Shown: positions 34,738 through 52,139 of the stretch, one piece after another
How the letters are laid out: the number at the start of each line of letters is the position of its first letter
Position numbering within the stretch: the first letter of the stretch is position 1
Assembly (NCBI GenBank): GCA_030524105.1
Contig: JAUNHE010000001.1
Coordinates: forward strand, 124,001-188,000
Origin: Rothia sp. (in: high G+C Gram-positive bacteria)
GTDB lineage: Bacteria > Actinomycetota > Actinomycetes > Actinomycetales > Micrococcaceae
DNA: 64,000 nt
Direction: 5' to 3'
Translations under genes and position numbers: made by a program
The notes under the pieces: generated by a model
Told to the model about the DNA's origin: nothing
Seen by the model: the letters and a program-made list of their open reading frames with translations, nothing else
Database searches by the model: none

Positions 34738-35604
34738 CTAATCTTGATCCGTATGGTGATCATGGTTGCTAACACCCCGGCGCCAGTAACCGTCCACATC
34801 CCAATGGTCCCGTTCGAGCTTAAGCTCATTCTTAATCCAGCGACGGATCGGTTTTATAGTCATAGCTTCCCCAGCAACCCAAACGAAGCCATCCCGGTTT
34901 GGGTAGTTGTGGTTAAGAATAGCCTGGGGCAGAAGCTGGCTTTCCCCAGCCGGGCTATCCTGCCGATCAAGCCAATGCAGACTCAGATCCGCCCGGGTGG
35001 GCAGACTTATACGGCTATGCCGGTTAGCCACCTCAATATAGGCAGTCACCGGAACCTCGGGACGCAGAACTTCAAGCCAGCGGGCCAAAGCCGGTAGAGA
35101 GGTCTCATCAGCACCCAAAACGTACCAGTCAAAAATATCTTTAATCAAAAAAGCACCCCGGGGGCCCAGAGCACCCAGCTGATCACCAACCCTTGCCCGA
35201 CTAGCCCAAAGCCCCGCAACCCCGTGATCATGGAGGACAAAATCAATATCAAGGTAGGCTTGCTGAGCATCAAACCAGCGTACAGTGTAATCCCTAAAAG
35301 TCAGCCCCCGTGAACTCCAGCGGCCATCCTGAAGGCGGGGCAGCACAGGCTGGCCAGCATCCGTCTGATCAAAAAAAAGCTTAATATGGTCAGTGGGGCA
35401 GACAAAGGGAAAGCCGGCAAAACCATCATCGGCACTAAAACGGATACGAACCATGCTTGCGCTGATGCGCTCGCTGGCCTGGACGGTTAGGATTCGGGGT
35501 TTAAGCTCAAAGGAATAGCCGGCTACTTTTTCATTCTCCTCTACCGGCTTCCAGCTGATAGGGGGCATAGGCCGTGCCTGCTGTACTTGTAGTGGCTGGG
35601 TCAT
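34738..35604 (-). CDS. Siderophore-interacting protein (ViuB-type ferric reductase)
   Basis: A cytoplasmic FAD protein of 288 residues that reduces the imported ferric siderophore to release iron. The FAD-binding FRDYTVRWFD carries the R-x-Y-T motif of the SIP family, ALGPRGAF the next loop, LGADETSLPALARWLE the NAD(P)H domain and VWVAGEAMTIKPIRRW the C-terminus. ATG 35604 has GGAGGAAAA directly upstream and overlaps the stop of the exporter gene (ATGA). Longer in-frame starts would run into that gene. Confidence 0.92.
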   Translation of the reverse strand: MTQPLQVQQARPMPPISWKPVEENEKVAGYSFELKPRILTVQASERISASMVRIRFSADDGFAGFPFVCPTDHIKLFFDQTDAGQPVLPRLQDGRWSSRGLTFRDYTVRWFDAQQAYLDIDFVLHDHGVAGLWASRARVGDQLGALGPRGAFLIKDIFDWYVLGADETSLPALARWLEVLRPEVPVTAYIEVANRHSRISLPTRADLSLHWLDRQDSPAGESQLLPQAILNHNYPNRDGFVWVAGEAMTIKPIRRWIKNELKLERDHWDVDGYWRRGVSNHDHHTDQD

Positions 35605-36917
35605 TTTTCCTCCAGTTGGGTTTTGGATGCAGGATAGGTGTAGTTTCTGAGTTCCTTGTTGGTTAACAGGCAGCCCGCACTGAGCAGGGCTGCCAGGGCA
35701 CCACCCAGGGCAATGGCCGGTGCCGCTCCTACCAGCTTGGCCAGCAGAGACAGGGCCGGGCCTCCCAGGGCGTCTCCTACTGTCAGCTGGATCTGCCATA
35801 GGCTGGTAATTTTGCCCCGTAGCCGATCTGGCGTCTGCTCTGAGATGATGGTAAAGCGTACGATTTCGGTCATGACGTCCAGGGCGCCTACCAAAACCAT
35901 AATAGCTAGAGCAAACAGTAGATTGCTGGCTAAGCCTAAGAGCAGGATACCGCAGGCGGAGCAGATAAAAAGAAGTCCGACTAAAAACCCCAGGTGAGGG
36001 TAGGAGCTAACCCAGCCGCTCATAAGCCCGGCGACTAGAGCCCCTAAGGCCGGGGCACTGTACATGAGGCCAACCTGATCGGAACTACCGCCAAAATGCT
36101 GGTTAACCAATTCGGGTATGAGCACGTGGGGTGAGGCACATAAAATCTGGATTAAACCAAGGAAGAGGATAGCAGCAACAACACGGTTGGCTCGGGTAAA
36201 GGCTAGGCTCTGAGCCAGTTCTGCGGCTGTGCTCTTCAGGGCCCTCAGCGCTAGCTTAGGCTGGGTAGGGGCTGCTGCTGTATCCCGGTTCCCGGTCTGC
36301 AGCTGCTGGGGAACTAAGCGGGGTAGGCCAGCAAGGACCAGCAGGGATAGGGCTGAGAGCAGCACTAAGATCCAAAAAACAGCGGCCAAAGAGAAAAAGG
36401 CGATGATGTAACCGGCTAGAGCGGGAGCAAAGACTACGCCTAAGTCCAGGGCTAGGGCCATGAGGGAGGCAGCTGCCGGCAGCTGTGAGGCAGGAACCAC
36501 GCTTGGTATGGCTGCACCGAAGGCTGCGGCTGAGGCTGAACCAAAAGCCGCGTTGAGGGCGCACAGACCATAAATCCAGGCCAGGGAAATACCGTTAGCT
36601 CCGGCGTTAAGGGCTAAACCTACAAAACAGGCAAGGGTGGCGCTGCGGGTGATCAGAATGAGGCTGCGCCGATCGTACCGGTCGGCTAATACTCCGCCCA
36701 CAAGAGAGCCAAAAACGGAGCTGACCCCCAGAACCGTATTAACGAGAGCTACCTGCAAGGAGGAGCCGGTTAGCTGGTAGACCTGAACATTGATGCTTAC
36801 CGTCAGCATGCTCAAAACAAAGATAGAGATGAGCCGCCCCCAAAAGAGAGAGCGAAAAGCTGGGTTGACTCGGAGAAGGCTAGGATCAATGCTGAGCTTT
36901 TTAACCCAGGACAGCAT
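35601..36917 (-). CDS. MFS exporter, EntS-like (siderophore export)
   Basis: A 12-helix major facilitator protein of about 438 residues. The N-terminus (LRVNPAFRSLFWGRLISIF) and the loop GGVLADRYDRRSLILITR resemble the enterobactin exporter EntS. By position it should export the finished siderophore. Start is ATG 36917 (a TTG at 36920 precedes it). It lies directly behind mbtH and overlaps the next gene by 4 bp. Confidence 0.88.
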   Translation of the reverse strand: MLSWVKKLSIDPSLLRVNPAFRSLFWGRLISIFVLSMLTVSINVQVYQLTGSSLQVALVNTVLGVSSVFGSLVGGVLADRYDRRSLILITRSATLACFVGLALNAGANGISLAWIYGLCALNAAFGSASAAAFGAAIPSVVPASQLPAAASLMALALDLGVVFAPALAGYIIAFFSLAAVFWILVLLSALSLLVLAGLPRLVPQQLQTGNRDTAAAPTQPKLALRALKSTAAELAQSLAFTRANRVVAAILFLGLIQILCASPHVLIPELVNQHFGGSSDQVGLMYSAPALGALVAGLMSGWVSSYPHLGFLVGLLFICSACGILLLGLASNLLFALAIMVLVGALDVMTEIVRFTIISEQTPDRLRGKITSLWQIQLTVGDALGGPALSLLAKLVGAAPAIALGGALAALLSAGCLLTNKELRNYTYPASKTQLEEK

Positions 36918-36920
36918 CAA

Positions 36921-37158: not shown

Positions 37159-40100
37159 TTAAAAATCTATCAATTGTGCCAGCTGTTCGGCAGCCCAGGG
37201 GCTGGTCATGCCTTCATGGTCGGTCTCAAGGCGTAGACAGCTCAGCCCAGGAACCAGTCCGGTCCAGCTGGCCTCAATCTGCTCTACTTCCTGGCTGGAT
37301 TTATCGGCTGTGGCAGTGACCAGATACACCCTGCCGGCAGGCTGAACCGGTTTTGCTTCTTCTAGAAGCAGGGAATTGACCCGGTAGCAGTCCACCAGGG
37401 CAGCAAGCTGCTGGTCCGAAAAATAGGAGTAAAGGCTGCTGCCTTCGTGCAGATGCTCCAGCACGTCCTCTGCCCGGTAGGGGGGCTGACCCAGCCAATC
37501 TGGAATGGGGCGGCCGTCAGCGCGGAGCAGAAAATTCAGGGCCTCTTGCTGGGCTAGGTTAGCTAGCTCCTGCTCAGAGCCTGCTAGCTTGGCCGGGTTT
37601 TCCTGCCCCTGAGGGGGGCGCCAACCGGTAGCAAAGCCGGGATCTAATAGGACGGACTGCGCTACCTCTATCCCGTGTTCTGCTAAAGACTGGCCCAGCG
37701 CAGCCAGCAGGTGAGCCCCAAAAGACCAGCCCACAAGCCGTATCTGCCTGGGGGCGCAGCTAGCAATAGCCTGGGCTAACTGCTGGGCTAGCTGGCCAAG
37801 ATTTTCTGGCTGCCCCTGCGGCCAGCCCAATAATCCTGGCGACTGCACCGCCCAGGCAGCCGGCCTGCCGGGTAGCCTGGCTGCCAGGGTAGAAAAAGAC
37901 CAGCCTAACCCCAGCGCCGGGTGAAGATAAAAAACCGGTAATTCAGAGCCCTTGTCCTGACCTCCCAAAGAAAGGAGCAGGCCCTGTTCGTCCTGGCCGC
38001 CTTCAAGACGAGCTGCCAAAGCCCGGGCTGTACCAGCCTGCATAAGGCTGGCAACAGAGACCCGCCGCCCCCACTGCGCCCCGATGCTGGCGGCAGCCTT
38101 CATGGCCAGCAGAGAATGACCTCCCAGGGCAAAAAAATCGTCCTCGGCCCCAAAGTCTTCTAAACCTAAAACGTCAGCAAAGGCCGCACAAATAACTGCT
38201 TCTAAGGGTGTTTGAGCGGGCTGCTTGCTGTGGGCAGAAAAATCGGGTTGGGGCAGGGCGGCTGTATCTAACTTGGAGTTAGCTGTCAGGGGCATGCTCT
38301 CTAACGGAACAACAAAGGCCGGAACCAGATGATCCGGAACCTGCTTCCGTAGCCGGGCCCGGAGCAGCTCAGCCTCTTGTGATTCCGGCTGATCGCCGGC
38401 ATCGGCCCAGACGACGTAGGCAACTAAAACTTTTGTTCCACCCGGGCCCAGCTTTGCTAGCACAGCGCACTGGCGCACCCGGCTGTCCTGCTCAATCAGG
38501 GCTTGAACTTCAGCCGGTTCTACCCGAAAACCGCGTATTTTAACCTGCTCATCGTTGCGTCCCAAAAAGTCAATCAGCCCGTTAGCTCGGCGGGAAACAA
38601 GATCACCGGTGCGGTACATGACTTGGCCGGCCTCACCAAAGGGGCAGGCCACAAACCGGCTGGCCGTCAGCCCCGTCTGTGACTGGTAGCCGTTGGCTAA
38701 GCCGGCGCCGCTTACCCACAACTCACCGGGTACCCCATCGTCTACGGGGGCCAGGGAAGAGTCCAAGACAAAGACGGCGGTATTATCAATAGGGTAGCCT
38801 ACGATAGGGCTGGAGCTCTCAAGCGTTCCGCCGCCCAGGGTATTGATGGTGTACTCGGTGGGGCCGTAGAGGTTGTAGCCCACAGTACCTTGAGCATGGT
38901 AGAGGGTAGACCAGATGCTCTTGCTGACAGCCTCTCCACCCAGCAGGACCAGTTTGGGTTTAACCCGGCGGAGCAGGCCTTGTTCTAGGAGGGCCTGGCA
39001 GAGCGAGGGGGTGACGTTGAGGACGTCGATCCGGTGTTTCTCTAGGAAATCAACCAGGTCAGCAGCGTCGAGCCTGGTTTGCTCATCGACAATCGTTACC
39101 TTGTGCCCATCAAGTAGCCAGAGGAGTTCTTCCCAGGACATATCAAAGGCAAAGGAAACAATATGGGCAATGTTAAAGGGGCGCTGCCAACTGGCGCCGC
39201 TGGGTTCAAAAATTTTACGGCGGTGGTTAGCCAGCATATTAACAAGACCGCGGTGAGCTACCTGAACAGCCTTGGGGTTGCCGGTTGATCCTGACGTAAA
39301 AATGAGGTAGGCCAGATCATCCGGGCTGTAACGGTCGTACAGTTGGCTTGCGCTCAGGCCAGGCTCGGCCGGGTCGCTGCTTATAAGCAGGGGCAGGGAG
39401 GGCAGGTTGGCTGGCTTGAGGTCCCCCCTTGCGTCGGTGATCAGGGCTGCAACTCCGGTTTGTTCAAGCAGCTGTTTGCGTCGTGCCGGCGGGTGGGACC
39501 TATCCAGAGGCAGGTAGGCTGCTCCGATAGCTAAAACGGCAAAGAGAGCAAGAACGCTGCCTACGCCACGCAGCAGATCAATAGCTACCAGATCCCCGGG
39601 CTTTACCCCAGCTTCTTTAAGCTGCTTGGCGTTAGCACTGATGCTGGACCAGAACTGACTGTAGGTGAGCTCCCGCTGCCCATCTGCCAGGGCCACACGA
39701 TGGGGCACTTGAGCTACGGTCTTCTCCAACTCTTGCAGGATTGATAGCTGGGATAAACTGTGCTGCTCACCCTGGCCCTGCTCCAGGGCGCGACGGTAAT
39801 CGTAATCCTGCAAAGTCTGTAAGGAACCCATCTTAGCTTGAGGGTTTGCAACCAGCTGACTGAGGAGAAACTTTGCTCTAGCTAGGAGTTTCTCTGCCTG
39901 CTGCTGGCTGATTATATCGTGCCGGTAGCTGAGAATGAGCCGGTAACCCTGTGGGTCCGGGTGCACAATAAAGGTGAGCGGATAGTGGGTGGCATCTCCG
40001 CCGCTTAAGTCCTCTAAGGATGTTTCTGCTTGCAGCTGGGCAAAAGCCTGATCATCCTGGGGGGTGTTGCGCATAATGTAGAGGGTGTCAAAAAGCTGGC

Positions 40101-41121
40101 CTATTCCCAGGGCCTGCTGGATGGCGCTTAGACCGCAGTGGTGGGCTTTGACTACCTGCCCCTGATGCTGCTGGGAGCGCTGTAAAAATTCCTGCACACT
40201 GGCAAAGGGATCAAACTGGACCCGCTGGGGCAGGGTGTTGAGGAAGAGGCCTATCATGGCTTCTACCGCGGCTACCTCGGCTTCCCTGCCCGAAACCGTG
40301 GTCCCAAAGACCAGGTCGTCGGAGCCCGTCAGTGAGCGCAATAGCAGGGCCCAGACGGCTGAGTAGACCGTTGACTCGGAGACAGCGCAGGTACGGGCTA
40401 GGTTTTTGATATCCTGGCAGAGCTGACTGCCTAGGTTTAGTTCGGTGACGCTGGGCAGGATTGCTTCTGTGTCTGCTTGGGCTGGGCCGACGAGGGTGCC
40501 GTGTTCTAGTCCGGCCAGGGCCTGCTTCCAGGTCTTGAGGGCCTGTTTGCTGTCTTGCTCCTGGAGCCAGGCCAGATAGTTGGCAAAGGGGGCCGGAGCT
40601 TCCAAGCTGTGGTCTGTGCCACCTGCACGAATATGGCTTAAGAGCTCAACAATAATAAGCGATTCTGACCAGCCGTCAAGCAGAATATGGTGGTTGGTGA
40701 CGACCAGTGCCGCCCTGCCTTGGGGCAGGAGCAGGTAGACAAAACGGATAAGCGGGGGTTTATCCATGTCGAAGCGTTGCTGGCGTTGGTCGCGTTCTAT
40801 GCGGTGGAGCTCATCCTGGGCCTGCTGCCAGCTCTGGTCTTCAAGGTGGTGCAGGCTAAAGTCTAGGCGGACTTGGTCGGTGATGAACTGTACTGGGTGT
40901 TGGGCAACAGAAACAGTAAAGCCTGCTCGGAGCATATCGTGCCTCTCTAGCAGGGTTTGGCAGGCGGCTTGAACGATGGCGGGCTCGGGTGCCTTGCTAA
41001 AGGTGTAGGTTGATTGCATGGAATAGACATCGAGGCTGGAGTCGTTGCCGAGGGCGTGGAAAAGCAGTCCTTCTTGGAGTGGTGCCAGGGGTAGGACTTG
41101 GATGTTTGCCTGCTGGGGCAT
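37159..41121 (-). CDS. NRPS, C-A-T-TE; predicted to load N5-hydroxyornithine
   Basis: 1320 residues, the terminal module. Condensation domain with HHILLDG (~residue 146). Adenylation domain with FTSGSTGNPK (~612), NLYGPTEYTIN and YRTGDLVS. Carrier domain with GGHSLLAM (Ser ~1001). Thioesterase with G-W-S-F-G (~1132). Aligned by eye to GrsA, the ten specificity positions read D-M-E-N-L-G-L-I-N-K, which I recall as the published (hydroxy)ornithine code. That agrees with an N-hydroxylase gene in the same operon. The TE should release or cyclise the chain. In the operon this gene follows the NRPS with two A-less modules, whose carriers this A domain might also load. Confidence 0.9.
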   Translation of the reverse strand: MPQQANIQVLPLAPLQEGLLFHALGNDSSLDVYSMQSTYTFSKAPEPAIVQAACQTLLERHDMLRAGFTVSVAQHPVQFITDQVRLDFSLHHLEDQSWQQAQDELHRIERDQRQQRFDMDKPPLIRFVYLLLPQGRAALVVTNHHILLDGWSESLIIVELLSHIRAGGTDHSLEAPAPFANYLAWLQEQDSKQALKTWKQALAGLEHGTLVGPAQADTEAILPSVTELNLGSQLCQDIKNLARTCAVSESTVYSAVWALLLRSLTGSDDLVFGTTVSGREAEVAAVEAMIGLFLNTLPQRVQFDPFASVQEFLQRSQQHQGQVVKAHHCGLSAIQQALGIGQLFDTLYIMRNTPQDDQAFAQLQAETSLEDLSGGDATHYPLTFIVHPDPQGYRLILSYRHDIISQQQAEKLLARAKFLLSQLVANPQAKMGSLQTLQDYDYRRALEQGQGEQHSLSQLSILQELEKTVAQVPHRVALADGQRELTYSQFWSSISANAKQLKEAGVKPGDLVAIDLLRGVGSVLALFAVLAIGAAYLPLDRSHPPARRKQLLEQTGVAALITDARGDLKPANLPSLPLLISSDPAEPGLSASQLYDRYSPDDLAYLIFTSGSTGNPKAVQVAHRGLVNMLANHRRKIFEPSGASWQRPFNIAHIVSFAFDMSWEELLWLLDGHKVTIVDEQTRLDAADLVDFLEKHRIDVLNVTPSLCQALLEQGLLRRVKPKLVLLGGEAVSKSIWSTLYHAQGTVGYNLYGPTEYTINTLGGGTLESSSPIVGYPIDNTAVFVLDSSLAPVDDGVPGELWVSGAGLANGYQSQTGLTASRFVACPFGEAGQVMYRTGDLVSRRANGLIDFLGRNDEQVKIRGFRVEPAEVQALIEQDSRVRQCAVLAKLGPGGTKVLVAYVVWADAGDQPESQEAELLRARLRKQVPDHLVPAFVVPLESMPLTANSKLDTAALPQPDFSAHSKQPAQTPLEAVICAAFADVLGLEDFGAEDDFFALGGHSLLAMKAAASIGAQWGRRVSVASLMQAGTARALAARLEGGQDEQGLLLSLGGQDKGSELPVFYLHPALGLGWSFSTLAARLPGRPAAWAVQSPGLLGWPQGQPENLGQLAQQLAQAIASCAPRQIRLVGWSFGAHLLAALGQSLAEHGIEVAQSVLLDPGFATGWRPPQGQENPAKLAGSEQELANLAQQEALNFLLRADGRPIPDWLGQPPYRAEDVLEHLHEGSSLYSYFSDQQLAALVDCYRVNSLLLEEAKPVQPAGRVYLVTATADKSSQEVEQIEASWTGLVPGLSCLRLETDHEGMTSPWAAEQLAQLIDF

Positions 41122-41166: not shown

Positions 41167-44100
41167 TTAACTGTCGAGACCTTGGATGAGTTGGTTGAGG
41201 GCATCCATATCTACGGGTTCTAGTTGGATTGTGGGCTGGGCGGTGTTACCGGTCTTTTCTGCTAGCGGCCTGATGTGGCGGGCTAGCTGCTCAAGGACGG
41301 GGTTGGCAAAGATATCTGCAGGGGTAAGTGTGAGACCCTCTTTTTTCAGGTGGCTGACAAGTGACATAGCGGTGATGGAGTCTGCTCCTAAGGCAAAGAA
41401 GTTTGCCTTAGGATCGGGTTCATCGGTGTGGAGGATTTCTGCTAAGGCTGCTTGTAGCTGGGGCAGATACTGCTGGCCTGCTGTGCCGGTTGTTTCGGAT
41501 TCTTGTTTTTGCTGCTGACGCAGTTGGCTGGCGCAGGCGCGGGCCCGGGGGCTGAGCACTGCTGCGGCCTGGCTGATGAGCTCTGCCGGGCTGCTCTTAC
41601 TGCCTGCTAGCAGGGTTAGTACCCTGTTGCAGGCTAGCAGGATGCTTTCGGCATCTTGAGGGGTCAGCGCTGAAGCCGGGTAGTCTAAGCTTAGTTGGCC
41701 TGCTCCTATATCTGCTGTGAGGGCAAAGGGGTAGTGGGTGTCGTCTTGGCCGCTGATCTGGCTGGCAACCAGGTTGGCTGCTAGCTGCTTGCTACTGGGT
41801 TTGGGGTAGTTTTCTAGCACGATCAGGGTGTCAAAGAGGACGGTTTTGCCGGTGCGCTGTGCTAGGTCGGTCAGCGCTGGCCAGGGGTTGCTGCTACCTA
41901 GGCGTAGGCAGCTGGTCAGTAGGTCGAGGGTTTCTTGGGTTTGTTCTGTTTGGGCGTTAAAAGCTAGCGGTATGGTGCCCAGGAACATGCCAATACTGGA
42001 CTGGCTGTTTTGGTCTCTGCCGGAGACCACTGTTCCTAGCATAAGTTGGTTTTGCCCACTCATTGCTGCCAGGACAGTTGCCCAAGCCAGGGCAGTAATT
42101 TCTGCTAGGCTACTCCTGTTTTTACGGGCTGCCTGGGCGGCTTGGGGGTTTAGTTGCCGGCTAAGGCTGTGGTGTGCGCCCTGCCAGGAGCCAAAGAGTT
42201 CTCCCTCATAGCGGGGGAGGAGGTCGTACCAGTCGGATTGCTGCTGCTGCGGGTGGGTGAGTAGGTAGGTGCAGTAGTCACTGTCGATCAGACTGGTCTG
42301 GGGTTTCTTGCGACTGGCCTGAGTCTGTTCTGCGTCAATGAGGGCACGGTAGTGGCTAAAGAGCCGGTCTATGATCACCGGCACGGACCAGCCGTCCAGG
42401 ATAAGGTGGTGGTCGTAGAAGATCAGCTGGTGCTCTTCTCCCGGCTGCTCGGCCTGAATCAGGGCCCAACGTAGCGGGATTTCGGTGTGGAGGTTGAGGG
42501 GCTGGTTGAGCCAGGCTAGGGCGCTGCTTTCTTCTTTAAAGACCTTAAACTGTGGCTGCTGCTGCGGGTGGGAGAAGAGGTAGAGTTGCTGGTCGTCCTG
42601 GCCTAGCCTGAGTCTTAGCTGGGGTTGCTGGCTAGCCAAGTCGGTGATGGCTTGGGCCAGGTGGGTTTGGCTGAGCTCTCCGGTCAGGGTTAGCCTGGTC
42701 CAGGACAGGTAAGGGTCCTCTTGGGCTGGCAGGGATTGGATGGCAATTCCTGTTTGGGCTGGGGTGAGCGGCCAGATTCCGTCTGCTCCTTGCTCCAAGG
42801 CCGTCTGCAGGCCTTGATCGCTGAGACCAAGTAGATCTAGGGGTAGGTGCTGCTCTGCCGGGGGAATCTCCTGTTGGGCTAGGTCTTCTAGGTAGGCTAG
42901 GGCCCGGTCGATAATCTGCTCCGTTTGGTCTGCTAGAGCTGGGGCCAGCTGCCAATGCAGGGTGAGCTGGTCTTGAACCAGGGAGGCGTTGACTTCAAGA
43001 GGATGGGAGATGGGCAGACTCTGGCCAAGCTGGGCGGCTTGTTCTAGTTCTATCGAGGAGTCGGCTAGGTGCCAGGGCTGGTCCTGGTCGGCCTGGCCTT
43101 CTTTGCCTAGGTAGTTGACCAGTATGTCGGCCTTAAAGAGAGTGTGCAGTTGGGTCAGGCAGATCTGGTCAAAAAATTTTTTGACTCGTTCGGTTCTGCG
43201 CTGGGCCTGTACCAGGTGTTCCTGGCTGCTTTTTCCCCGAGCGGAGGGAAGGGGAACCTGCCAGGTTTTGGTCCACCAGCCAACGACGCTGGACCAGTCA
43301 ACCTGGTGCTTGCCGGCTTTAAGAAGCCGGCCATGGGATTCAAATTCCACGACGCAGGCCCTGCCTATGCCAGCCGCTGTAGCCGCCGCCAGGATCAGGT
43401 CCATGCTGTAGCCGCTGCTGGCAAGTTTGATAAGTTGTGCGCTGGTTTCTCGCGGCAGAAGGCTGCGGGTTCGCTGGGCCTGTGCTACGGTGTCTTGCCG
43501 GCTGAGCTGGATAGGGTCGGGAGCCTTAACCGAGGTGGTGGCAGGCTTCTTGTCTTGGTCGGCTAGTCGGGTGAGGAAACCTTTAATGCTGTCTACTTCT
43601 TTGCTGTAGGCCTGTGCGGCTGCCTGCTCAGCTGCTGCCGCTGCCATCCAGGATTGGGCTGGTGCCAGTGTGCGTCCCTGGCAGAGGGCTTTGAGGTCTT
43701 CGATGATGATGGGCCAGGAAATTGCATCAACCCCCAGGTGGTGGGCCACTAAGAGAAGCTGGTTCTGCTGGACTCGTCCGGCAAAAAATAGTCTGCCCCG
43801 GTCTGGGTCTAGGCGGCCAGCTAGGTGTTTTACCCAGGCTGCTTTTGCAGGCTTGTCAGCTGCTAGCTCTTTTTCCTCCAGCAGGGGCTGGTAGGGGGAG
43901 GCCAGTTTAAGCTGGGCAGGTTGATCGTCGGTTATGGTAACCGCCAGGCGTAAACTTTGGTGGCGTTCTAGCACAGTTTTAAGGGCAGCGGCAAGTTGTT
44001 CCTGCCTGAGCTGGGCCGGTATCGTGATCAGCCGCGCTTGGATAAAAGGATCCTGGGTCTTGCCAATATGCTGGCAGTACCATCTGAGGGCGGCAGGCAG

Positions 44101-47100
44101 GGCCAGCTTGTAGATGTCTTTGTCAGCCAGGCTGGAGGGTTCAAGAGCTGGCTCTTGGATAGTTTGGGCTTCTTGGGCGAGGGCCCGGGCGGTTCTGCCG
44201 GTAAAAATGCTGGCAATACTGATCTGGTAACCAGCTTGGCGTAGCAAACCAACCAGCTGCATGGCAGCAATAGAATCTGCCCCGCTAGCAAAAAGATCCT
44301 GGTCTGCCCCAATATCTGTCTCTAAAATCTGCCGGCAGGCCTTAAGGACAGCTTTGAGTGCCGGGCTGTCTGTTTCAGCTCCTTTAGGTTGTGCTTTTGC
44401 TGGGCCTCGATTGTGCTGCTCTGCTGCCAGTTGCTGTGCCTTATCTTGTGCCAGCCAGGGGGCTGTCTTAAGCTGCTGCCTATCTGGCTGGGGCAGCTTA
44501 AGGTCTGTTTTGTCTAGGCCCAGGAGATCGTAGAGGTGGCCAAGGAAGGTGGAAAGAAGCTGCTGGGCCCAGGCTGGCTGGGCCTGGGGCAGGTCAAGTT
44601 CAACCTGGACCTTAATCTGCCCTTTAGCTTCGGCTACAGTCAGTGCTACCGGGAAGCCGGCGCGGTCTTGCCCAGAAAGAGCGCGCACTTGTGCCTGGCC
44701 GGACTGGGTTTTTTCTTCTAAGGGATAGTTTTGCACCACAAGCAGGGTGCAGAAGTTGACGCCGGTTTCGCGGCGGATTTGGGCCGCTCCTAGGTGGGAG
44801 GCATACTCGGTATCGGCTATCCAGCGCTTGATGCTAGCCAGCAGGTTTTTGGTTGACTGTTCGGTGTTGAGGTAGACCGGCCGGGTGCTAATAAAAGAAC
44901 CCATTGCTTGTTCTAGATCAAGCGGTAGATCTCGGCCGGAGGAGGTCAGGCCATAACAGACGCGGGAGGAGCCGGTAAGTTCTGCCAGGCTTAAGGCCCA
45001 GGCTGCCTGGGCTAGGCTGGCAAGAGTGGTTTCAGCTTGCTTAAGCTGGTCTGCAAGTGTGCTGCTCTTTTCTTTACTGGACCAGGTGGCCTCTACTGTA
45101 GTGCTTGAGCCAAGGAGCTGCTGCTGTGTGAGAAGGTCGGGCACATCCTGGGCCTGGGCTAGATGCTGCCGCCAGAGTTCACGCCAACTCTCTTGGTCTT
45201 GTTGTTCTAACCAATTAAGGTAGGTAAACCAGCCTAGGTCTTGGCTCAGAGGCTGGTGGGCGAGCAGCTGTTCTAAACTGTTGGCCATGACGGCATTGCT
45301 CCAACCATCGGCTAGCAGGTGGTGGGTGCCCAGGTAGAGTTTAAGCCGGCCGGGGCCCTGCCGTAGCCAGACCGGTGCAAGTAGACGGTGCCGGTTAAGA
45401 TCTAGGTTTTCTATGGCTAGGGTTCGGGCTTGCTGATCCAGGGCTGCTAAGTCTTGGTCAGAAAGTTTAGCGCCAGCTAAAAAGATGTGTTCATACTGCT
45501 GGGGTTGGACTTGAACCGCCCAGGGCTGCTTGTGCTGGCCCTGAATAAAGACAGTGGATAGGACCGGGTGGGCTCCTATAAAGTCGGCAAAAATTTCTTT
45601 AAGCCTGGCATCTGAGATCTCTTCTGGGCTGCTGAGCTCAAAAACGGTTAGCGTGCGATACGGGTCCTCTTGGGCTCGGAGGGCGTCAATATAGATACCT
45701 AGCTGGGAGCCGCTCAGTCGACAGTAGCTGCTGGCCTTTGTGTTGGGCCCCAGGGCTTGCTCAAGTTCGGCGGCTAGTAGCTGATTCTTAGCTAGAGCGC
45801 TGTCTGCCTGCTCTCTTGGGTTAACCTGCTCGGCACCGGTCAGCTTGCCGGTCTGCCTGCTGGCTTGCATGAGGCGTCCGGCGGCGGCTAGTGTAGGGGC
45901 GTTGATGAGCTGGGCGGCAGCTAAAAAGTAGCCGCGTCTACTTAACCCGGCACAAATACGTACTGCGCTAATAGAGTCTCCACCGGCAGCAACAAGAGAA
46001 AGATCGGTCTTGACCGGACCTCCTAGAACCTTAGCGGCAGCATCTGCTAGGGCGGCTAGCTGCTCTGACGTTTCATGGCTGTTTTGCTGAGCTTCTAGCT
46101 GGGTGCTCCAGGCTGGTTGAGGGAGGGCAGCGCTATCTAGTTTGCCGCTGCTGGTCACCGGAAAATGATCTGTTTTGAGTATGGTTCTTGGAACCATATA
46201 TGCTGGAAGCTGTTTGCTTAACTCGGCTTCCACCTCGTCCACCGCGCGCTGGCCAATAATCCAGGCTAGCAGCCTGCGCCCACCTAAGGGATGCTCTAGC
46301 GCACCAACGTGGGCACGCTCTACCCCATCCACCCGCAGTAAAGCAGCGGCCACCTCTCCGGGTTCAATCCGGTAGCCATTAATAGAAAGCTGATCATCGC
46401 TGCGGCCCAAGAGTTCCACTAAACCGCTGGCCCCCACTCTGGCTAAGTCTCCGGTGCGATAAAGCCGTTCGCCGGCTTTGGCCAAGTGCTTGGGGGCAGC
46501 CACAAACCGGCTGGCTGTTACTGCTGGCATACCCAGGTAGCCCTGGGCTAGCTGCTGGCCAGCAAGATAAAGTTCACCAATGGCACCTAGGGCTACAGGC
46601 CGTAAAAGACGGTCTAGAATATAGGCTCGCGTAGCCCCGACCGTTCGTCCCACTACCGGTTTCTCAGACTCAGCTACCTGAGCTGCCAGCGCATCAACCG
46701 TATTCTCTGTTGGGCCGTAAGCGTTAATGACCAAAGCCTGCTCAAGCTGGCTGCGTTCGCGCATTTGACTCCAGAGGGCCGGTGGAAAATTTTCACCGCC
46801 AGCCACACAGACCGGGGGCAAACTAGCTAGCTGATCCGCCTTAAGGTGAGCCGCCCACAGGGCAGGCCCTAAATCAAGATAGTCAATAGAGTGCTCCGCT
46901 ACAGCCGCAGCCATAGCGGCTGTATCCAAGAGGAGGTCCTCAGCAAAAACAAAAACCTGGTGGCCGGCAAAGATAGCTAGCAGGGCGTCCCAGTGGGCAT
47001 CAAAATGCAGGGCATTGCTGTGGGCAACCTGCTTCTTGGGTCCCTGCCATAGCTTTTTAAGCTGGTAGCTTGCAAGGTGAGCCATAGCCTGCTGGCTAAT

Positions 47101-48942
47101 GGCTACCGGCTTTGGCAGGCCGGTAGAACCGGAGGTGAGCACCACAAAAACAGTCGAATCAGCTTCTAAGGGATCGGCCGGATCAAAAAGGGGCTGATCG
47201 CTTACTAAATCGCTGCCTCTTCCGGCCAGTAGGCCCCGGTCCGTAATAATAAGAGCCGGATTCAGCTGCGCTAAAATCTCTTGTTTACGCCCGTCGGGTA
47301 GGGCGTGGTTAATAACTAAAGTCTGTACCGGTAGTCTCATTGCCGCAAAAATCCAGCAGATGGCCGGCAGGCTCCGGGGCATATCTAACACGAGCAGCGG
47401 ATGACGCTGGCAGGACCGGTTTATAAGGAAGTCGCTTAACTGCTGGCTTTTTTCCCGCACCGCTTCATCCATCTGGGCAAAGGTTAGTTCTTGACCCAAC
47501 CCTTGGGTGTCAAGCCAGCTTAAGGCGGGACGGTCAGCAAATTTCAGGGCAGCCTGCTCCCAGAGCTGGCCTAAAAAGTCGCCGGCCGAACCCGGTGGGG
47601 GCTCCTGCTCCAAGTTTTGGGCACAGAGCTCTTGGTTAGCCTTGGTGCGAAGGTCAAGATCGGCCAGCAGGGGGTTATTAGCTTGGGCCCAGAGCTGCAA
47701 AATTTTAATAAAACCCTCCAGCAAACCGTTCACGGCTAAACGATCAACCCGCTGGTCATCAAAGTCAAGCTGCAGCTGGGCCGGCTTATGCTGACGCTGC
47801 TGCCCAGCCGGTAGGAGCACCGTGAACATGAGAGGGTAGTGGGAGGAGTCTTCCAGGTTAGTTAGCTTGATTTCTGCCCGGCTAGCATCAGCAAGAGTGC
47901 AGTGCGCCCGGCTGGGGCCGTGATCATGCTCCACAGCAAAGAGTACCTGAGCCGGGTCTTTGCTAGCCAGCGCAGTTAAAATGCCAGACAAACCCAGGTG
48001 CTGGTGCTGCTGGCTGTACTGCCAGCGACTATAGAGATCTTCTATAGCCCCATCCAGGCTGGCAGCATCCTGGCTGGGAAAGCCCGCTAAAACGGAATCC
48101 GTTAACAAACCTAGAGTGTGGGTGATGCCGGCAATTTCCGGGTTTCTTCCGTGAACGGGCACCACAAATGCGGTTCCATTCTGTCCGGTTAACCAATCAA
48201 GTGTTAGGGCAAAAGCTGCCTGCAAAACTCCGGCAAGAGACAGCGATAAATGCTGAGCTCGCTGGGTAAGATCCTTAAAAAGCTGCTCATCAAGAAGGCC
48301 TTTCTGTTGGACAAGAGAACCGGGGGAGCCAGCAAGGCGCCACCAGGGCAGGGGCTGGTCACTTAGGTGAGCCAGCTCTTTCTGCCAGAATTTTTGGGCG
48401 GCGTCCTTATCAGCTGCCTGAAGCTGCGCCAGATGCTCCTGGTAGGGGGCAGCTTGTGGAAAAGGATCCTGGGACAGGGCCAGGGCAAGATAATCAACCA
48501 GCAAACGCATGGACCAGGCGTCCATGACCGCATGATGGGCGCTTACTAGCAGAATCGTGCGTGAGGGTGAATGGAAGCTGTCCCAGCGGACGAGGGCTGG
48601 CCTGTCTAAGTGGAAGGGTTCTAGGCGACGCTGCCTGCTCACCCGGGCCCAGCCAGCCTCTAGCTGGGCATCAGCAAGACGATGAGAAGAAAAGTCTAGG
48701 TCCTCAGCGGTGAAGTCGTTAACAAACTGGACCGGCTCAAGGTCTTCATCTACCAGAAAACCAGCCCGCAGCTGTGGAGCAAATTCAAGAATCTGCTCTA
48801 GGGCACGTTTCAGCATCTCGGGTTCTAAGGCGGCAGCAATGTCAATTCTGCCCTGTCCTATATAGGAGCTGGCAAATTGGCCTTCTTGCTGTACCAAAAA
48901 AGCAGTTTGTAGAGCAGTTGTGGGCCAAACCTGGGTATTCAT
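41167..48942 (-). CDS. NRPS, C-A-T-C-T-E-C-T with two modules lacking A domains
   Basis: 2591 residues. Module 1: C domain (HHAVMDAWS, ~136, with Ala in place of the usual Gly), A domain (LTSGSTGLPK ~597, NAYGPTENTVD, YRTGDLA), carrier GGDSISAV (~985). Module 2: C domain (HHLLADGWS ~1208), carrier GADSIAAM (~1555), then an epimerization domain (HHLGVDAISW ~1736, EFESHGRL, VVGWWTKTW, VNYLGKEG). Module 3: C domain (HHLILDGWS ~2181), carrier GADSITAM (~2520), then the C-terminus. No adenylation core motifs lie between C and T in modules 2 and 3, so these carriers must be loaded in trans. My reading of the A-domain code is DADDVGAVDK, which resembles Glu/Gln-type codes but is not assigned. Confidence 0.9.
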   Translation of the reverse strand: MNTQVWPTTALQTAFLVQQEGQFASSYIGQGRIDIAAALEPEMLKRALEQILEFAPQLRAGFLVDEDLEPVQFVNDFTAEDLDFSSHRLADAQLEAGWARVSRQRRLEPFHLDRPALVRWDSFHSPSRTILLVSAHHAVMDAWSMRLLVDYLALALSQDPFPQAAPYQEHLAQLQAADKDAAQKFWQKELAHLSDQPLPWWRLAGSPGSLVQQKGLLDEQLFKDLTQRAQHLSLSLAGVLQAAFALTLDWLTGQNGTAFVVPVHGRNPEIAGITHTLGLLTDSVLAGFPSQDAASLDGAIEDLYSRWQYSQQHQHLGLSGILTALASKDPAQVLFAVEHDHGPSRAHCTLADASRAEIKLTNLEDSSHYPLMFTVLLPAGQQRQHKPAQLQLDFDDQRVDRLAVNGLLEGFIKILQLWAQANNPLLADLDLRTKANQELCAQNLEQEPPPGSAGDFLGQLWEQAALKFADRPALSWLDTQGLGQELTFAQMDEAVREKSQQLSDFLINRSCQRHPLLVLDMPRSLPAICWIFAAMRLPVQTLVINHALPDGRKQEILAQLNPALIITDRGLLAGRGSDLVSDQPLFDPADPLEADSTVFVVLTSGSTGLPKPVAISQQAMAHLASYQLKKLWQGPKKQVAHSNALHFDAHWDALLAIFAGHQVFVFAEDLLLDTAAMAAAVAEHSIDYLDLGPALWAAHLKADQLASLPPVCVAGGENFPPALWSQMRERSQLEQALVINAYGPTENTVDALAAQVAESEKPVVGRTVGATRAYILDRLLRPVALGAIGELYLAGQQLAQGYLGMPAVTASRFVAAPKHLAKAGERLYRTGDLARVGASGLVELLGRSDDQLSINGYRIEPGEVAAALLRVDGVERAHVGALEHPLGGRRLLAWIIGQRAVDEVEAELSKQLPAYMVPRTILKTDHFPVTSSGKLDSAALPQPAWSTQLEAQQNSHETSEQLAALADAAAKVLGGPVKTDLSLVAAGGDSISAVRICAGLSRRGYFLAAAQLINAPTLAAAGRLMQASRQTGKLTGAEQVNPREQADSALAKNQLLAAELEQALGPNTKASSYCRLSGSQLGIYIDALRAQEDPYRTLTVFELSSPEEISDARLKEIFADFIGAHPVLSTVFIQGQHKQPWAVQVQPQQYEHIFLAGAKLSDQDLAALDQQARTLAIENLDLNRHRLLAPVWLRQGPGRLKLYLGTHHLLADGWSNAVMANSLEQLLAHQPLSQDLGWFTYLNWLEQQDQESWRELWRQHLAQAQDVPDLLTQQQLLGSSTTVEATWSSKEKSSTLADQLKQAETTLASLAQAAWALSLAELTGSSRVCYGLTSSGRDLPLDLEQAMGSFISTRPVYLNTEQSTKNLLASIKRWIADTEYASHLGAAQIRRETGVNFCTLLVVQNYPLEEKTQSGQAQVRALSGQDRAGFPVALTVAEAKGQIKVQVELDLPQAQPAWAQQLLSTFLGHLYDLLGLDKTDLKLPQPDRQQLKTAPWLAQDKAQQLAAEQHNRGPAKAQPKGAETDSPALKAVLKACRQILETDIGADQDLFASGADSIAAMQLVGLLRQAGYQISIASIFTGRTARALAQEAQTIQEPALEPSSLADKDIYKLALPAALRWYCQHIGKTQDPFIQARLITIPAQLRQEQLAAALKTVLERHQSLRLAVTITDDQPAQLKLASPYQPLLEEKELAADKPAKAAWVKHLAGRLDPDRGRLFFAGRVQQNQLLLVAHHLGVDAISWPIIIEDLKALCQGRTLAPAQSWMAAAAAEQAAAQAYSKEVDSIKGFLTRLADQDKKPATTSVKAPDPIQLSRQDTVAQAQRTRSLLPRETSAQLIKLASSGYSMDLILAAATAAGIGRACVVEFESHGRLLKAGKHQVDWSSVVGWWTKTWQVPLPSARGKSSQEHLVQAQRRTERVKKFFDQICLTQLHTLFKADILVNYLGKEGQADQDQPWHLADSSIELEQAAQLGQSLPISHPLEVNASLVQDQLTLHWQLAPALADQTEQIIDRALAYLEDLAQQEIPPAEQHLPLDLLGLSDQGLQTALEQGADGIWPLTPAQTGIAIQSLPAQEDPYLSWTRLTLTGELSQTHLAQAITDLASQQPQLRLRLGQDDQQLYLFSHPQQQPQFKVFKEESSALAWLNQPLNLHTEIPLRWALIQAEQPGEEHQLIFYDHHLILDGWSVPVIIDRLFSHYRALIDAEQTQASRKKPQTSLIDSDYCTYLLTHPQQQQSDWYDLLPRYEGELFGSWQGAHHSLSRQLNPQAAQAARKNRSSLAEITALAWATVLAAMSGQNQLMLGTVVSGRDQNSQSSIGMFLGTIPLAFNAQTEQTQETLDLLTSCLRLGSSNPWPALTDLAQRTGKTVLFDTLIVLENYPKPSSKQLAANLVASQISGQDDTHYPFALTADIGAGQLSLDYPASALTPQDAESILLACNRVLTLLAGSKSSPAELISQAAAVLSPRARACASQLRQQQKQESETTGTAGQQYLPQLQAALAEILHTDEPDPKANFFALGADSITAMSLVSHLKKEGLTLTPADIFANPVLEQLARHIRPLAEKTGNTAQPTIQLEPVDMDALNQLIQGLDS

Positions 48943-48950
48943 TGTGGTCC

Positions 48951-51900
48951 CTATCCTTTCCCTGGGCGGTGACGGCGGGCAAGAAGCTGACGAACAGCAG
49001 CTACTTGCTGCTCATCCTGGACCAGGCTGCTGGCGGTAGCTGCCTGGGTGTGCACCTTAGCCTGCATAGAGCGGGCAATGTCTTTGAGGCGTCGATCGTT
49101 AAAGATGCTTGTGACTGAGCTCTGCCAGCCTAGGTTTGCTAGCTCGGCAACAACCCGGATAGCTAGGATGGAGTCTCCACCGAGAACAAAAAAATCATCC
49201 TGAATAGACGGGTTCTTCACTTTAAGAACCCTTTCAAAAACCTGGGCTAAAACTTTTTCTTCTTGGGTCTGTGGCGGCTCTGTCTGGCTGCTTAGCTGGG
49301 GGATCTCCAGCTGATCCAAGGCCACCTTGCCGTGTGCCGTGTAAGGAAAATTTTCAAGCGGAATCAGCAGGTGGGGCAGGAGGTGGGCCGGCAGCTCTTG
49401 GGCTAGTTCTTCTCTGAGTTGCTGGGCTGGGTACTGGCTGATAACCCAGGCTATAAGCCGGTCTGCCTCAGCTTTAACCACAGCCTGGCTGATATGGGGG
49501 TTGGCTTCTAGGGCCGCTACGATTTCTCCGGGTTCAATGCGGTAGCCTCTCACTTTAACCTGCTGGTCGGCCCGGCCCACATAGAGGAGGCCTCCTCTTG
49601 GGAGTTTACGCACTAGATCGCCGGTGCGGTACATTCGCTGGCCCGCTTTGCCCCAGGGGCAGGCAAGAAAACGTTCGGCAGTTTTAGCGGGCAGGCCCAG
49701 GTAACCTAAGGCAAGCTGGGGTCCAGAAAGATAGAGTTCACCCAGGCTACCCTCCGCTACCGGCTGTAAGGTTGGGTCCAGCACATGGGCGTCAAAGCCG
49801 GCCAGGGGCCAGCCGATAGGGGAGCCACCCCAGTAGGAAAGATACTGGTTTATTTCTTGCTCCTGCTGGCTTGTCAGTTCTTTCTTGGACAGGCCAAGAG
49901 CATTAACCGTTGTTTCGGTTGGTCCGTAGAAATTATGGCTAGCCAGTTGTCCTTGGCTTATGCTGTTCCACAGTTCGCTTGAGCAGGCTTCCCCGCCAAC
50001 TTCTATGAGGGCCAGCTCCTGGTCACCGTCCAGCAGTCCTTCATTGACCAAGGATTGCACCACTGTTGGTGTGCTGTGAATACTGTTGATTCCGTACTGG
50101 CCAATATACTGGCAGGCCGTGTGGGGATCTCGCAGGTCTTCTTCGGAAATTAGGTATAGCTGCCAGCCCCAGAGCAAGGAGCCTAAGGCATCCCAACTGG
50201 CATCAAAGGTTAGCGGTGCGCTCAGCAGGGCTTTTGCCGGTTTCTGGTGCTGCCAGAGACTTAGCCAGTGATTATGTAGATGGTTTGCCAGACTAGCCTG
50301 GCTAACCAGTACCGGTTTTGGCTGGCCGGTTGAACCGGAGGTATGAATAATGTAGGCCGGGGCGTCTTGGCTTATCTTAACCGGTTCGGCAGGGGAGCTG
50401 TCTTGCTGGTCTTGCTGGTCAGTCCAGCTGCGGATCTGATCTTGATTAATGGTTATGGGAGTCAGAGGCAGGCTGCGGTTAAGGTGGTCTCGTATACTGT
50501 TTTTTCGCGCTAGGGGCCACTTGTCATCCAGCGGTACAGCAATGCGGCCACAGCTTATGCTAGCCAGTAGCCAGCAGAGAGCATCAATACTGCGTTCCAG
50601 GTCTAAAATCAGGGCCTGACCGGCCTGGCTGTGTTTCTCTAGTAGGTTTTGAATGCTCTGGATGCGTTGAGCTAATTGGCCGTAGCTTAAGGTTTCTAAC
50701 TGTCCATTGGGTTTTTTTATGCTTAAGGCTGGCTGCTGGGAGTGCTGCCTGCAACTTTCTGCCAGCAATTGCCCTAAAAGTTTTTTAGTTTCAGGCGCCT
50801 GCCTGGCCTGGGTCCTGTGCTTGCTGTGAGCTTGCTCGGCTGCTGGGCGGAGCTTGATCCTGCCCAGGCGTCTTGTGCCGTGAGCAGGGTTGGTCAGTTC
50901 TAGCAGTGCGGTGTTAAGATCCCTGATTCTTTCTGCCACATAGGTTTGGTTCAGTCCGGTGGGGTAGGTGGCCTTCCAGCTGGATTCTTTGCCAAGGGTG
51001 GCTAAGAAGTTGAGGTCTTTAATGGGGCCTTGGTTGAGGTTAATAATTTCTGGTTGGCAGCCAGCAACCCGGGGGAGCTGGTTAAACATTTTGATATTGA
51101 GCTCGGTAGCAAAGGGCTGACTGCCGCGGGCATGGTGGCCGTGGAGGGTCAGCAATTTTTCTGCTGGGTAGCGGCTATGCTTTTTGATGTCGCTCAGACG
51201 GCTGGCAACGCTATGCAGATAGTCCGAGACGCTCATGGCCGGATCTATGCTCAGGTGCAGGGGTAGAACGTTCACGGTACTGCTGAGGGTCCGGGCAGCT
51301 AGCGAGTCCTGACGGTTCATCATGGGCAGGCCAATAGCTACCTCAGAAGCGCAGGTATTTTTAGCCAGCACAAGTCCGTAGGCGGCCAGCAGTAGATCGG
51401 CCGGTCCTAGCTGTTCTTGAGCTGCTGCCAGACTCAGTTCCCGTAAGGAGAAAGGTAATTTGGCTTGCAGGCTAGTTTTTTGCTGAATCCTTGTTTGTCT
51501 GCTCTGGGGGCTAAAGCCAGTTACTACTGTTTCTGCTGGCTCCTGACCTGCCCAGAAGTTATGATCTAGCTGGAACTGTTCTGAGCTTAGGTAGGCAGCT
51601 TCTGCCTGGAGTAGTTCACTGGGCTCAGCCCAGGGCTCTGGCCCAGTCTGACTAGGGTCTAAGGCTGCCTTGAGGTGGCCCAGAAAGGCTTTTAAGAGCA
51701 GCGTTATTCCGTAGCCATCAATCAAAATATGGTGGGTTACTAGGCTCAGAGCGCAGCCAGCCGCACCTAAATTAAAGAGTTTTATTCTGATCAAACAGTC
51801 AGAAGTAAGGTTTATAGGCCTTTGTGTATCCTCTAGGGCAAGGGCTTGTGCCTGTTCTAAGGCGGTTGGGGAGGAGGCCAGGTTGTGTCTGACAATGTGA

Positions 51901-52139
51901 GGGGACTGACCGGGGACTAAAGAGGCCTGGCCACCGGGCCCCTGGGCTAGGCGGTAGCTCAGGTAGGGGTTTTGGGCAAGAGTTTTTTCTAGGGCCTGGT
52001 AGAGAGTCTGTTCAGCTAGTTGTTGAGGAATATAAAGCAGATCTCCAACAAGGAGCTGGTAGGAATCTGGCTCCAGCAGCTGTGCTGAGAGTATACCGGC
52101 CTGGCTGGTTGTCAGCGCTAGTTCTTGCGGTTGTGGCAT
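48951..52139 (-). CDS. NRPS, C-A-T (probable starting module)
   Basis: 1062 residues. A condensation domain leads (HHILIDGYG, ~residue 139), then an A domain (HTSGSTGQPK ~600, NFYGPTETTVN, YRTGDLVR, VRGYRIEPGE) and a carrier domain (GGDSILAI ~989). As first NRPS of the operon it should begin the chain. An N-terminal C domain in a first module often attaches an acyl cap or acts on an acylated residue. By-eye specificity residues are DADHEGFVNK, which I cannot match to a known substrate. It starts 30 bp after the lipoprotein gene and ends 8 bp before the next NRPS. Confidence 0.88.
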   Translation of the reverse strand: MPQPQELALTTSQAGILSAQLLEPDSYQLLVGDLLYIPQQLAEQTLYQALEKTLAQNPYLSYRLAQGPGGQASLVPGQSPHIVRHNLASSPTALEQAQALALEDTQRPINLTSDCLIRIKLFNLGAAGCALSLVTHHILIDGYGITLLLKAFLGHLKAALDPSQTGPEPWAEPSELLQAEAAYLSSEQFQLDHNFWAGQEPAETVVTGFSPQSRQTRIQQKTSLQAKLPFSLRELSLAAAQEQLGPADLLLAAYGLVLAKNTCASEVAIGLPMMNRQDSLAARTLSSTVNVLPLHLSIDPAMSVSDYLHSVASRLSDIKKHSRYPAEKLLTLHGHHARGSQPFATELNIKMFNQLPRVAGCQPEIINLNQGPIKDLNFLATLGKESSWKATYPTGLNQTYVAERIRDLNTALLELTNPAHGTRRLGRIKLRPAAEQAHSKHRTQARQAPETKKLLGQLLAESCRQHSQQPALSIKKPNGQLETLSYGQLAQRIQSIQNLLEKHSQAGQALILDLERSIDALCWLLASISCGRIAVPLDDKWPLARKNSIRDHLNRSLPLTPITINQDQIRSWTDQQDQQDSSPAEPVKISQDAPAYIIHTSGSTGQPKPVLVSQASLANHLHNHWLSLWQHQKPAKALLSAPLTFDASWDALGSLLWGWQLYLISEEDLRDPHTACQYIGQYGINSIHSTPTVVQSLVNEGLLDGDQELALIEVGGEACSSELWNSISQGQLASHNFYGPTETTVNALGLSKKELTSQQEQEINQYLSYWGGSPIGWPLAGFDAHVLDPTLQPVAEGSLGELYLSGPQLALGYLGLPAKTAERFLACPWGKAGQRMYRTGDLVRKLPRGGLLYVGRADQQVKVRGYRIEPGEIVAALEANPHISQAVVKAEADRLIAWVISQYPAQQLREELAQELPAHLLPHLLIPLENFPYTAHGKVALDQLEIPQLSSQTEPPQTQEEKVLAQVFERVLKVKNPSIQDDFFVLGGDSILAIRVVAELANLGWQSSVTSIFNDRRLKDIARSMQAKVHTQAATASSLVQDEQQVAAVRQLLARRHRPGKG

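What the first reader, a model, noticed from the sequence alone, without database searches (positions are those of the whole stretch)
41167..45840. Two consecutive NRPS modules without adenylation domains
In the 2591-residue NRPS, modules 2 (C-T-E) and 3 (C-T) have condensation and carrier motifs but no A3-A10 core motifs between them. Five carriers share three A domains in the operon. Loading in trans, most simply by the hydroxyornithine A domain of the terminal NRPS, would yield up to three hydroxyornithines (a hexadentate trihydroxamate). Trans loading is known in other NRPS systems; this pattern may be new.
Basis: partly seen in the sequence, partly recalled or inferred. Interest (0 to 1): 0.72.

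Follow-up and report, generated by a model that had tools for sequence, protein, structure and literature searches.

The report
Siderophore synthetase with two loader-less modules
A bacterial assembly line for an iron-scavenging peptide has two successive work-stations that cannot load their own building block and must borrow a neighbour's loading domain; the arrangement is old and shared by several bacterial genera, and the product is probably a mixed catechol-hydroxamate iron chelator, not the purely hydroxamate one first proposed.

Summary
Confirmed: the 2591-aa NRPS (41167-48942, minus strand) reads C-A-T / C-T-E / C-T, with no detectable adenylation domain in modules 2 and 3 (only 33 and 26 residues between C and T). 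The genome holds no stand-alone amino-acid A domain. The A-less modules are not decay: seven other actinobacterial genomes (and a partial eighth) have them at 31-36% identity, with catalytic motifs intact in the five genera aligned. The terminal A domain's hydroxyornithine-type code is constant. The trihydroxamate reading is not supported: the first C domain is starter-type; all seven relatives have a dihydroxybenzoate (DHB)-AMP ligase near the NRPS, fused to the N-hydroxylase in at least two; and the window's genome has a DHB gene set at two other loci with iron-box-like sites upstream. Best reading: a DHB-capped catecholate-hydroxamate siderophore whose A-less carriers borrow a sibling A domain, as in fungal SidC. 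Which A domain (middle, in cis; terminal, in trans) is unresolved. A-domain sharing is known; two consecutive A-less modules with an E domain in a conserved bacterial siderophore line is a new variant.

The parts
41167..48942 (-). Middle NRPS, 2591 aa, C-A-T-C-T-E-C-T
47629..48942 (-). C1 (condensation), residues 1-438
46105..47577 (-). Only A domain of the middle NRPS, residues 456-946; code DADDVGAVDK (DADDVG[L/A]VDK in all relatives), acidic pocket, suggests a basic amino acid
45853..46074 (-). T1 carrier, residues 957-1030
44473..45762 (-). C2 of A-less module 2, residues 1061-1490, HHLLADG intact
44152..44373 (-). T2 carrier of A-less module 2, residues 1524-1597, GADS intact
42850..44136 (-). 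E (epimerisation) domain, residues 1603-2031, HHLGVDAISW / VNYLG
41560..42810 (-). C3 of A-less module 3, residues 2045-2461, HHLILDG intact
41257..41481 (-). T3 carrier of A-less module 3, residues 2488-2562, GADS intact
48951..52139 (-). First NRPS, 1062 aa, C(starter-type)-A-T; A code DADHEGFVNK
37159..41121 (-). Terminal NRPS, 1320 aa, C-A-T-TE; A code DMENLGLINK (hydroxyornithine type)
54020..55333 (-). Lys/Orn N-hydroxylase (PF13434, 345 bits); nearest solved relatives MbtG, KtzI, PvdA
53266..54057 (-). Siderophore ABC transporter ATPase
52170..53183 (-). Siderophore-binding lipoprotein (PF01497)
35601..36920 (-). MFS transporter, probable siderophore exporter
   Evidence: conserved in relatives
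34738..35799 (-). Siderophore-interacting (ferric reductase) protein; the listed start overlaps the MFS gene and the true start is probably further in
33683..34687 (-). FecCD-type permease
32679..33686 (-). FecCD-type permease
55400..55418 (-). DtxR/IdeR-like iron box TTAGGTTTGCCTTAGCTAA, 67 bp upstream of the hydroxylase start
   Evidence: (1 match, 0.01 expected)

Best explanation
The operon makes a 2,3-dihydroxybenzoyl-capped mixed catecholate-hydroxamate siderophore. DHB activated by the DHB-AMP ligase and held on the free aryl carrier (both encoded elsewhere in the genome) is joined by the starter-type C domain of the first NRPS to residue 1. The middle NRPS adds residues 2, 3 (epimerised) and 4. 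The terminal NRPS adds N5-hydroxyornithine and releases the product. Carriers T2 and T3 have no A domain of their own and are aminoacylated by a sibling A domain; my first choice is the A domain of the same polypeptide reaching one and two modules downstream, as SidC A3 does in fungi. Shown here: domain anatomy, absence of other amino-acid A domains, conservation of the architecture, linkage to DHB genes. Inferred: that T2 and T3 are loaded at all, which A domain loads them, and the chemistry of the product.
For: A-less modules certain. No stand-alone amino-acid A domain and no other NRPS module in the genome. Same two A-less modules in seven other genomes and a partial eighth, at about 31-36% identity to the window protein, with C2, T2, E, C3 and T3 motifs kept in the five genera aligned; each C and E position forms its own orthologous clade, so the modules are ancient and kept. 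The middle A and the two A-less modules stay on one polypeptide in all eight homologues that could be read through. The A codes of middle and terminal NRPS are invariant while that of the first NRPS varies, as expected if the first is not a shared loader. DHB link: ligase near the NRPS in all seven relatives, fused to the hydroxylase in at least two; dhbB-dhbA-dhbC-PPTase and fes-dhbE-ArCP in this genome with iron-box-like sites just upstream; no other NRPS there to use DHB. Precedent for n+1 and n+2 loading in a C-A-T-C-T-C-T layout: SidC (PMC10192304).
Against: Nothing here distinguishes the middle from the terminal A domain. T2 and T3 are most like each other (39% within species) and about equally far from T1 (29-33%) and the terminal T (28-30%). 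The C-domain neighbour test failed its own control. Chelation logic favours more hydroxyornithine than one, which speaks for the terminal A: if the middle A loads a plain basic residue at positions 2-4, DHB plus one hydroxamate gives only four iron ligands unless side chains are acylated or the TE oligomerises. In this genome the DHB genes are unlinked to the operon, and the ligase is nearer to the genus's enterobactin-type ligase (51-62%) than to those near the NRPS in other genera (39-45%).
Confidence: 0.5

Rival explanations
1. One reading: the terminal hydroxyornithine A domain loads T2 and/or T3 in trans, giving two or three hydroxyornithines; with the DHB cap the product is a catechol plus two (or three) hydroxamates, formed by acylation at the delta-N-OH.
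For: DMENLGLINK is invariant; the terminal A (56%) and its C (55%) are the most conserved domains of the line; DHB plus two hydroxamates would be hexadentate; trans loading of an A-less module by another protein's A domain is shown for CmnI/CmnA-A1 (PMC12400406).
Against: The terminal T is the carrier most unlike the others (own clade, one-residue insertion, GGHSL in three of four). The terminal C is as conserved as its A although it would play no part in trans loading. No PF13523 acyltransferase to make ordinary hydroxamates.
Confidence: 0.34
2. The A-less modules add no residue: they are passed over or only hand the chain on, and T2-E serves to epimerise a chain translocated from T1.
For: Skipped or optionally used modules are known in NRPS lines (review PMC8949500). 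A genus-mate NRPS coded basic-Gly-hydroxyornithine, reminiscent of the tripeptide heterobactin (from memory), also has one A-less C-T module after its E domain.
Against: Both A-less modules keep full acceptor-side machinery (C active site and phosphopantetheine Ser) in five aligned genera; a useless C-T pair would be expected to decay or be deleted at this divergence.
Confidence: 0.1
3. A stand-alone or distant A domain that was missed, or another non-A source, loads T2 and T3.
For: Draft genome in 11 contigs; stand-alone A domains serve A-less modules in syringomycin, WS9326A and others (PMC8949500, PMC9943842).
Against: Genome reported 100% complete; all 12 AMP-binding matches are accounted for, none a free amino-acid A domain.
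Confidence: 0.05
4. Assembly error or recent deletion of two A domains, making a pseudo-assembly line.
For: None found.
Against: Same boundaries and short linkers in seven homologues from independent genomes; motifs intact.
Confidence: 0.01

Closest known systems
SidC, ferrichrome/ferricrocin synthetase of Aspergillus (PMC10192304)
   Same: One A domain followed by two A-less C-T modules on the same chain; A3 shown to load T4 and T5; siderophore; hydroxylated ornithine building block
   Different: Fungal, cyclic hexapeptide trihydroxamate, terminal CT domain; no E domain in the A-less modules, no DHB cap; here the adjacent A code is not hydroxyornithine type
CmnA-A1 / CmnI (VioI) in capreomycin/viomycin biosynthesis (PMC12400406)
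   Same: Bacterial A-less module loaded by another module's A domain; actinobacterial
   Different: Separate single A-less protein, MbtH-assisted, antibiotic not siderophore; only one A-less module
Fungal SidD / Nps6 (fusarinine) synthetases (PMC10192304)
   Same: Downstream carrier loaded by the upstream A domain; hydroxamate siderophores
   Different: The second module keeps a truncated A domain; fusarinine ester chemistry
Heterobactin / rhodochelin-type actinobacterial siderophores (PMC5550956; structures from memory)
   Same: DHB plus hydroxyornithine; rhodochelin genes also spread over three loci; a genus-mate NRPS coded basic-Gly-hydroxyornithine has one A-less module (L038)
   Different: Three-gene line with two A-less modules and no Gly-coded A domain; I could not inspect the heterobactin synthetase itself
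Enterobactin genes of Rothia (PMC7190385 by title and abstract; loci L166, L167 of genus-mates)
   Same: fes-dhbE-ArCP block and DHB use; own ligase 62% identical to those of G002 and G101
   Different: Those genomes have an EntF-type C-A-T-TE next to it; the window's genome has none and has the A-less line instead
SyrE/SyrB1 (syringomycin) and other A-T in-trans cases (PMC8949500)
   Same: Module without A in the main line
   Different: Served by a dedicated stand-alone A-T protein, absent here

Membership tests
NRPS lines with A-domain sharing (inter-modular loading), SidC/CmnI type | C-T module(s) without an A domain but with intact catalytic motifs | tested here: met
NRPS lines with A-domain sharing (inter-modular loading), SidC/CmnI type | No dedicated stand-alone A domain in the genome | tested here: met
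NRPS lines with A-domain sharing (inter-modular loading), SidC/CmnI type | An A domain of another module charges the A-less carrier | not testable with these tools
   needs a loading assay by intact-protein MS
NRPS hydroxamate siderophore synthetase | Hydroxyornithine-type A domain plus flavin N-hydroxylase and siderophore transport genes in one operon | tested here: met
   the A code assignment itself is from memory
   only one A domain has the code; loading of T2 and T3 not known
Catecholate-hydroxamate siderophore (DHB-capped) | DHB biosynthesis genes, DHB-AMP ligase and aryl carrier present | tested here: met
   own genome, two loci; ligase and DhbA are best hits but below the NCBIfam equivalog cut-offs; relatives
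Catecholate-hydroxamate siderophore (DHB-capped) | Starter-type first C domain | tested here: met
   first C groups 100/100 with first C domains of NRPSs that begin a line
Catecholate-hydroxamate siderophore (DHB-capped) | Product structure | not testable with these tools
   no metabolite data
Heterobactin synthetase | Modules coding Orn-Gly-hydroxyornithine | tested here: not met
   no Gly-type code in the three A domains
Enterobactin EntF | Ser-specific C-A-T-TE | tested here: not met
   terminal A code is DMENLGLINK, not Ser type; no other C-A-T-TE in this genome

The most novel reading that the evidence does not exclude
A bacterial counterpart of fungal SidC that arose separately: one A domain charges three carriers along its own chain, including an epimerising A-less module, in a DHB-capped siderophore line conserved across actinobacterial families; in the window's genome an enterobactin-type DHB supply that has no EntF appears to have been re-used by the incoming line.
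Probability: 0.35. Interest if true: 0.65.

Novelty: new variant of a known kind. Interest (0 to 1): 0.52.

Why it matters
Product prediction from NRPS genes assumes one A domain per module; this family breaks that rule twice in a row and has kept doing so while its members diverged to about 31-36% identity. It offers a bacterial, operon-encoded set of natural variants in which the choice of carrier by an A domain over a distance can be tested, and it predicts an uncharacterised catecholate-hydroxamate siderophore in Glutamicibacter, Brevibacterium, Mycetocola, Kineosphaera and a Rothia-like bacterium.

Tried and rejected
Loader identity from C-domain neighbours: failed its control, since the terminal C, whose A code is known, did not find hydroxyornithine modules. 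Carrier tree: unresolved for T2 and T3; carrier identities only show that T2 and T3 resemble each other. Literature look-up of the A codes: no paper in the library prints them. Search for the double A-less form in the wider class: two searches gave no answer. Attempt to reach the heterobactin synthetase through a Rhodococcus locus: the genome record is 12.4 Mb, probably mixed, so not used. Literature searches for A-less siderophore modules by phrase: nothing on this cluster. Trihydroxamate product: dropped as the leading idea because of the DHB linkage. Assembly artefact: rejected because of homologues. Structure prediction was not run: the tool returns no coordinates or interface scores, so it could not tell which A domain reaches T2 and T3.
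Full report
What was checked. The 2591-aa ORF at 41167-48942 (minus) was translated and scanned. Pfam gives four condensation-family stretches, one AMP-binding domain and three carriers. A purpose-built A-domain HMM with filters off scores below zero there and 678 bits on the real A domain. The order is C-A-T-C-T-E-C-T with C-to-T linkers of 33 and 26 residues. All catalytic motifs of the A-less part are intact.

Operon. Upstream on the same strand lies a C-A-T NRPS (48951-52139) and downstream a C-A-T-TE NRPS (37159-41121). Around them are an N-hydroxylase, ABC ATPase, binding lipoprotein, MFS transporter, siderophore-interacting protein and two FecCD permeases. Nearest solved relatives of the hydroxylase are MbtG, KtzI and PvdA, i.e. 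lysine and ornithine N-hydroxylases. A DtxR/IdeR-like iron box lies 67 bp upstream of the hydroxylase start (one match, 0.01 expected). The genome is 2.19 Mb in 11 contigs, in the same family as Glutamicibacter uratoxydans; some genus-mates carry a fes-dhbE-ArCP-entF block, like the enterobactin producers known in Rothia, so Rothia is my inference for the genus, not a test.

Insertion. In all 16 genus-mates where both genes were placed on one contig, gltD and pyk lie 0.8-2.0 kb apart; here they are 24.4 kb apart. In G059 the gap holds just two flavodoxin-like genes. The siderophore operon is therefore an insertion between gltD and the flavodoxin pair. None of the 24 genus-mates shown gave a comparable match (best 100 bits, from a differently built NRPS). 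The operon was gained here or lost elsewhere; gain is the simpler reading.

No hidden A domain. The genome has 12 AMP-binding matches: the three NRPS A domains; a DHB-AMP ligase; MenE and an OleBC fusion; and six others, five of which match acyl-, acetate- or propionate-CoA ligases, the sixth (L007) reading like a long-chain acyl-CoA ligase but without an NCBIfam match at 1e-60. Carriers in the genome: five NRPS, one ACP, one free aryl carrier. No PF13523 hydroxamate acyltransferase. So if T2 and T3 are used, a sibling A domain must serve them.

Relatives. G536 proved to be B. gallinarum again. In L056-L059, L035 (G201) and the window the three-gene order C-A-T | C-A-T-C-T-E-C-T | C-A-T-TE is seen, except that the carrier of the Brevibacterium terminal protein was not detected and the first C of the G201 middle protein is on a separate ORF. 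The operon order hydroxylase-ABC-PBP-NRPSx3-MFS-SIP-FecD-FecC holds in Brevibacterium, Mycetocola and Kineosphaera, while in Glutamicibacter the PBP lies after the MFS gene. Identity of the middle proteins to the window's is 31-36%. Each C and E position forms its own clade across the five aligned genera, most with strong support. The layout is therefore ancestral to the family and kept, not decay.

Substrate codes. Terminal A: DMENLGLINK in every relative whose terminal NRPS was read; from memory this is the hydroxyornithine code of exochelin-type modules. Middle A: DADDVG[L/A]VDK in all eight homologues read; two pocket Asp suggest a basic residue. First A varies: DADHEGFVNK here, DGDDNGYVDK, DGDDSGFVDK and DGCDSGLVDK elsewhere. 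The alignment puts a one-residue gap at positions 235-239, so position 239 was read ungapped, and the match to the remembered code depends on that. Invariance of the middle and terminal codes against variation of the first fits the first A not being a shared loader; this is an inference.

A catechol in the product. In this genome dhbB-dhbA-dhbC and an Sfp-type PPTase lie at C11:50-53 kb, and an enterochelin-esterase-like gene, a DHB-AMP ligase and a free aryl carrier at C11:272-275 kb. NCBIfam scores for the ligase (573 of 723) and DhbA (232 of 300) are best hits but below the equivalog cut-offs; the isochorismate synthase passes its subfamily cut-off (277 of 225). The only iron-box-like site with four or fewer mismatches in that 30-kb stretch lies just upstream of the esterase gene, and a weaker five-mismatch site lies just upstream of dhbB. 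No other NRPS is there to use DHB. In all seven relatives a ligase lies on the same contig within about 10-20 kb of the middle NRPS (G201, G246, G393, G445, B. gallinarum, K. limosa, M. reblochoni); in G445 and B. gallinarum it is one reading frame with the N-hydroxylase, and frames of 1234-1435 aa in G393, K. limosa and M. reblochoni suggest the same, not read. The first C domain groups with C domains that open other lines. The leading product class is thus catecholate-hydroxamate, not trihydroxamate. Genus-mates G002 and G101 have fes-dhbE-ArCP-entF; the window's genome keeps fes-dhbE-ArCP without entF, so the DHB supply looks re-used.

Which A domain? For the middle A: same chain, same topology as SidC, where A3 loads T4 and T5 and the C domains help (PMC10192304); A and both A-less modules stay together in all homologues read through. 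For the terminal A: iron chemistry (DHB plus two hydroxamates would be hexadentate), and CmnA-A1/CmnI shows bacterial trans loading (PMC12400406). Sequence tests did not decide. I put 0.5 on the shared-A line with the middle A favoured, 0.34 on the terminal A.

Novelty. A-less modules and A sharing are known (PMC8949500, PMC9943842, PMC11446937). Two in a row with an E domain, in a DHB-linked bacterial siderophore line conserved over several genera, I did not find described; the library lacks most subscription journals, so this is not proof of absence.

Noticed in passing
L040:16982-17000 and L041:42-3408 (own genome C11 ~272.0-275.4 kb): Esterase (fes-like), DHB-AMP ligase and aryl carrier genes sit inside the ribosomal protein operon, between rpsQ (S17) and rplN (L14), with an iron-box-like site in front.
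   Followed up: partly
L160 (G445) and L161 (Brevibacterium gallinarum): DHB-AMP ligase and ornithine N-hydroxylase fused in one reading frame; I know of no described case.
   Followed up: partly
window 32673-55519: Siderophore operon inserted between gltD and a pair of flavodoxin-like genes that in genus-mates lie between gltD and pyk.
   Followed up: yes
L038:3858-18113 (genus-mate G294): NRPS C-A(basic code DADDVGLVDK)-T-E-C-T-C-A(Gly)-T-C-A(hydroxyornithine)-T-TE: a heterobactin-like line with one A-less module, carrying the same code as the middle A here.
   Followed up: partly
L069, L079, L082, L100, L106, L112, L113, L118, L128 (Streptomyces): NRPSs ending C-A-T-E-C-T, i.e. an A-less last module, some with a C-A-T-C-A-T-TE partner; different family.
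   Followed up: no
L010:380-5283 (own genome C1 ~38-43 kb): OleA, OleB-OleC fusion and OleD-like genes, i.e. a long-chain olefin pathway.
   Followed up: no
window 55519-56709: Two tandem Flavodoxin_5 proteins on the minus strand, conserved in G059; probably unrelated to the NRPS.
   Followed up: no
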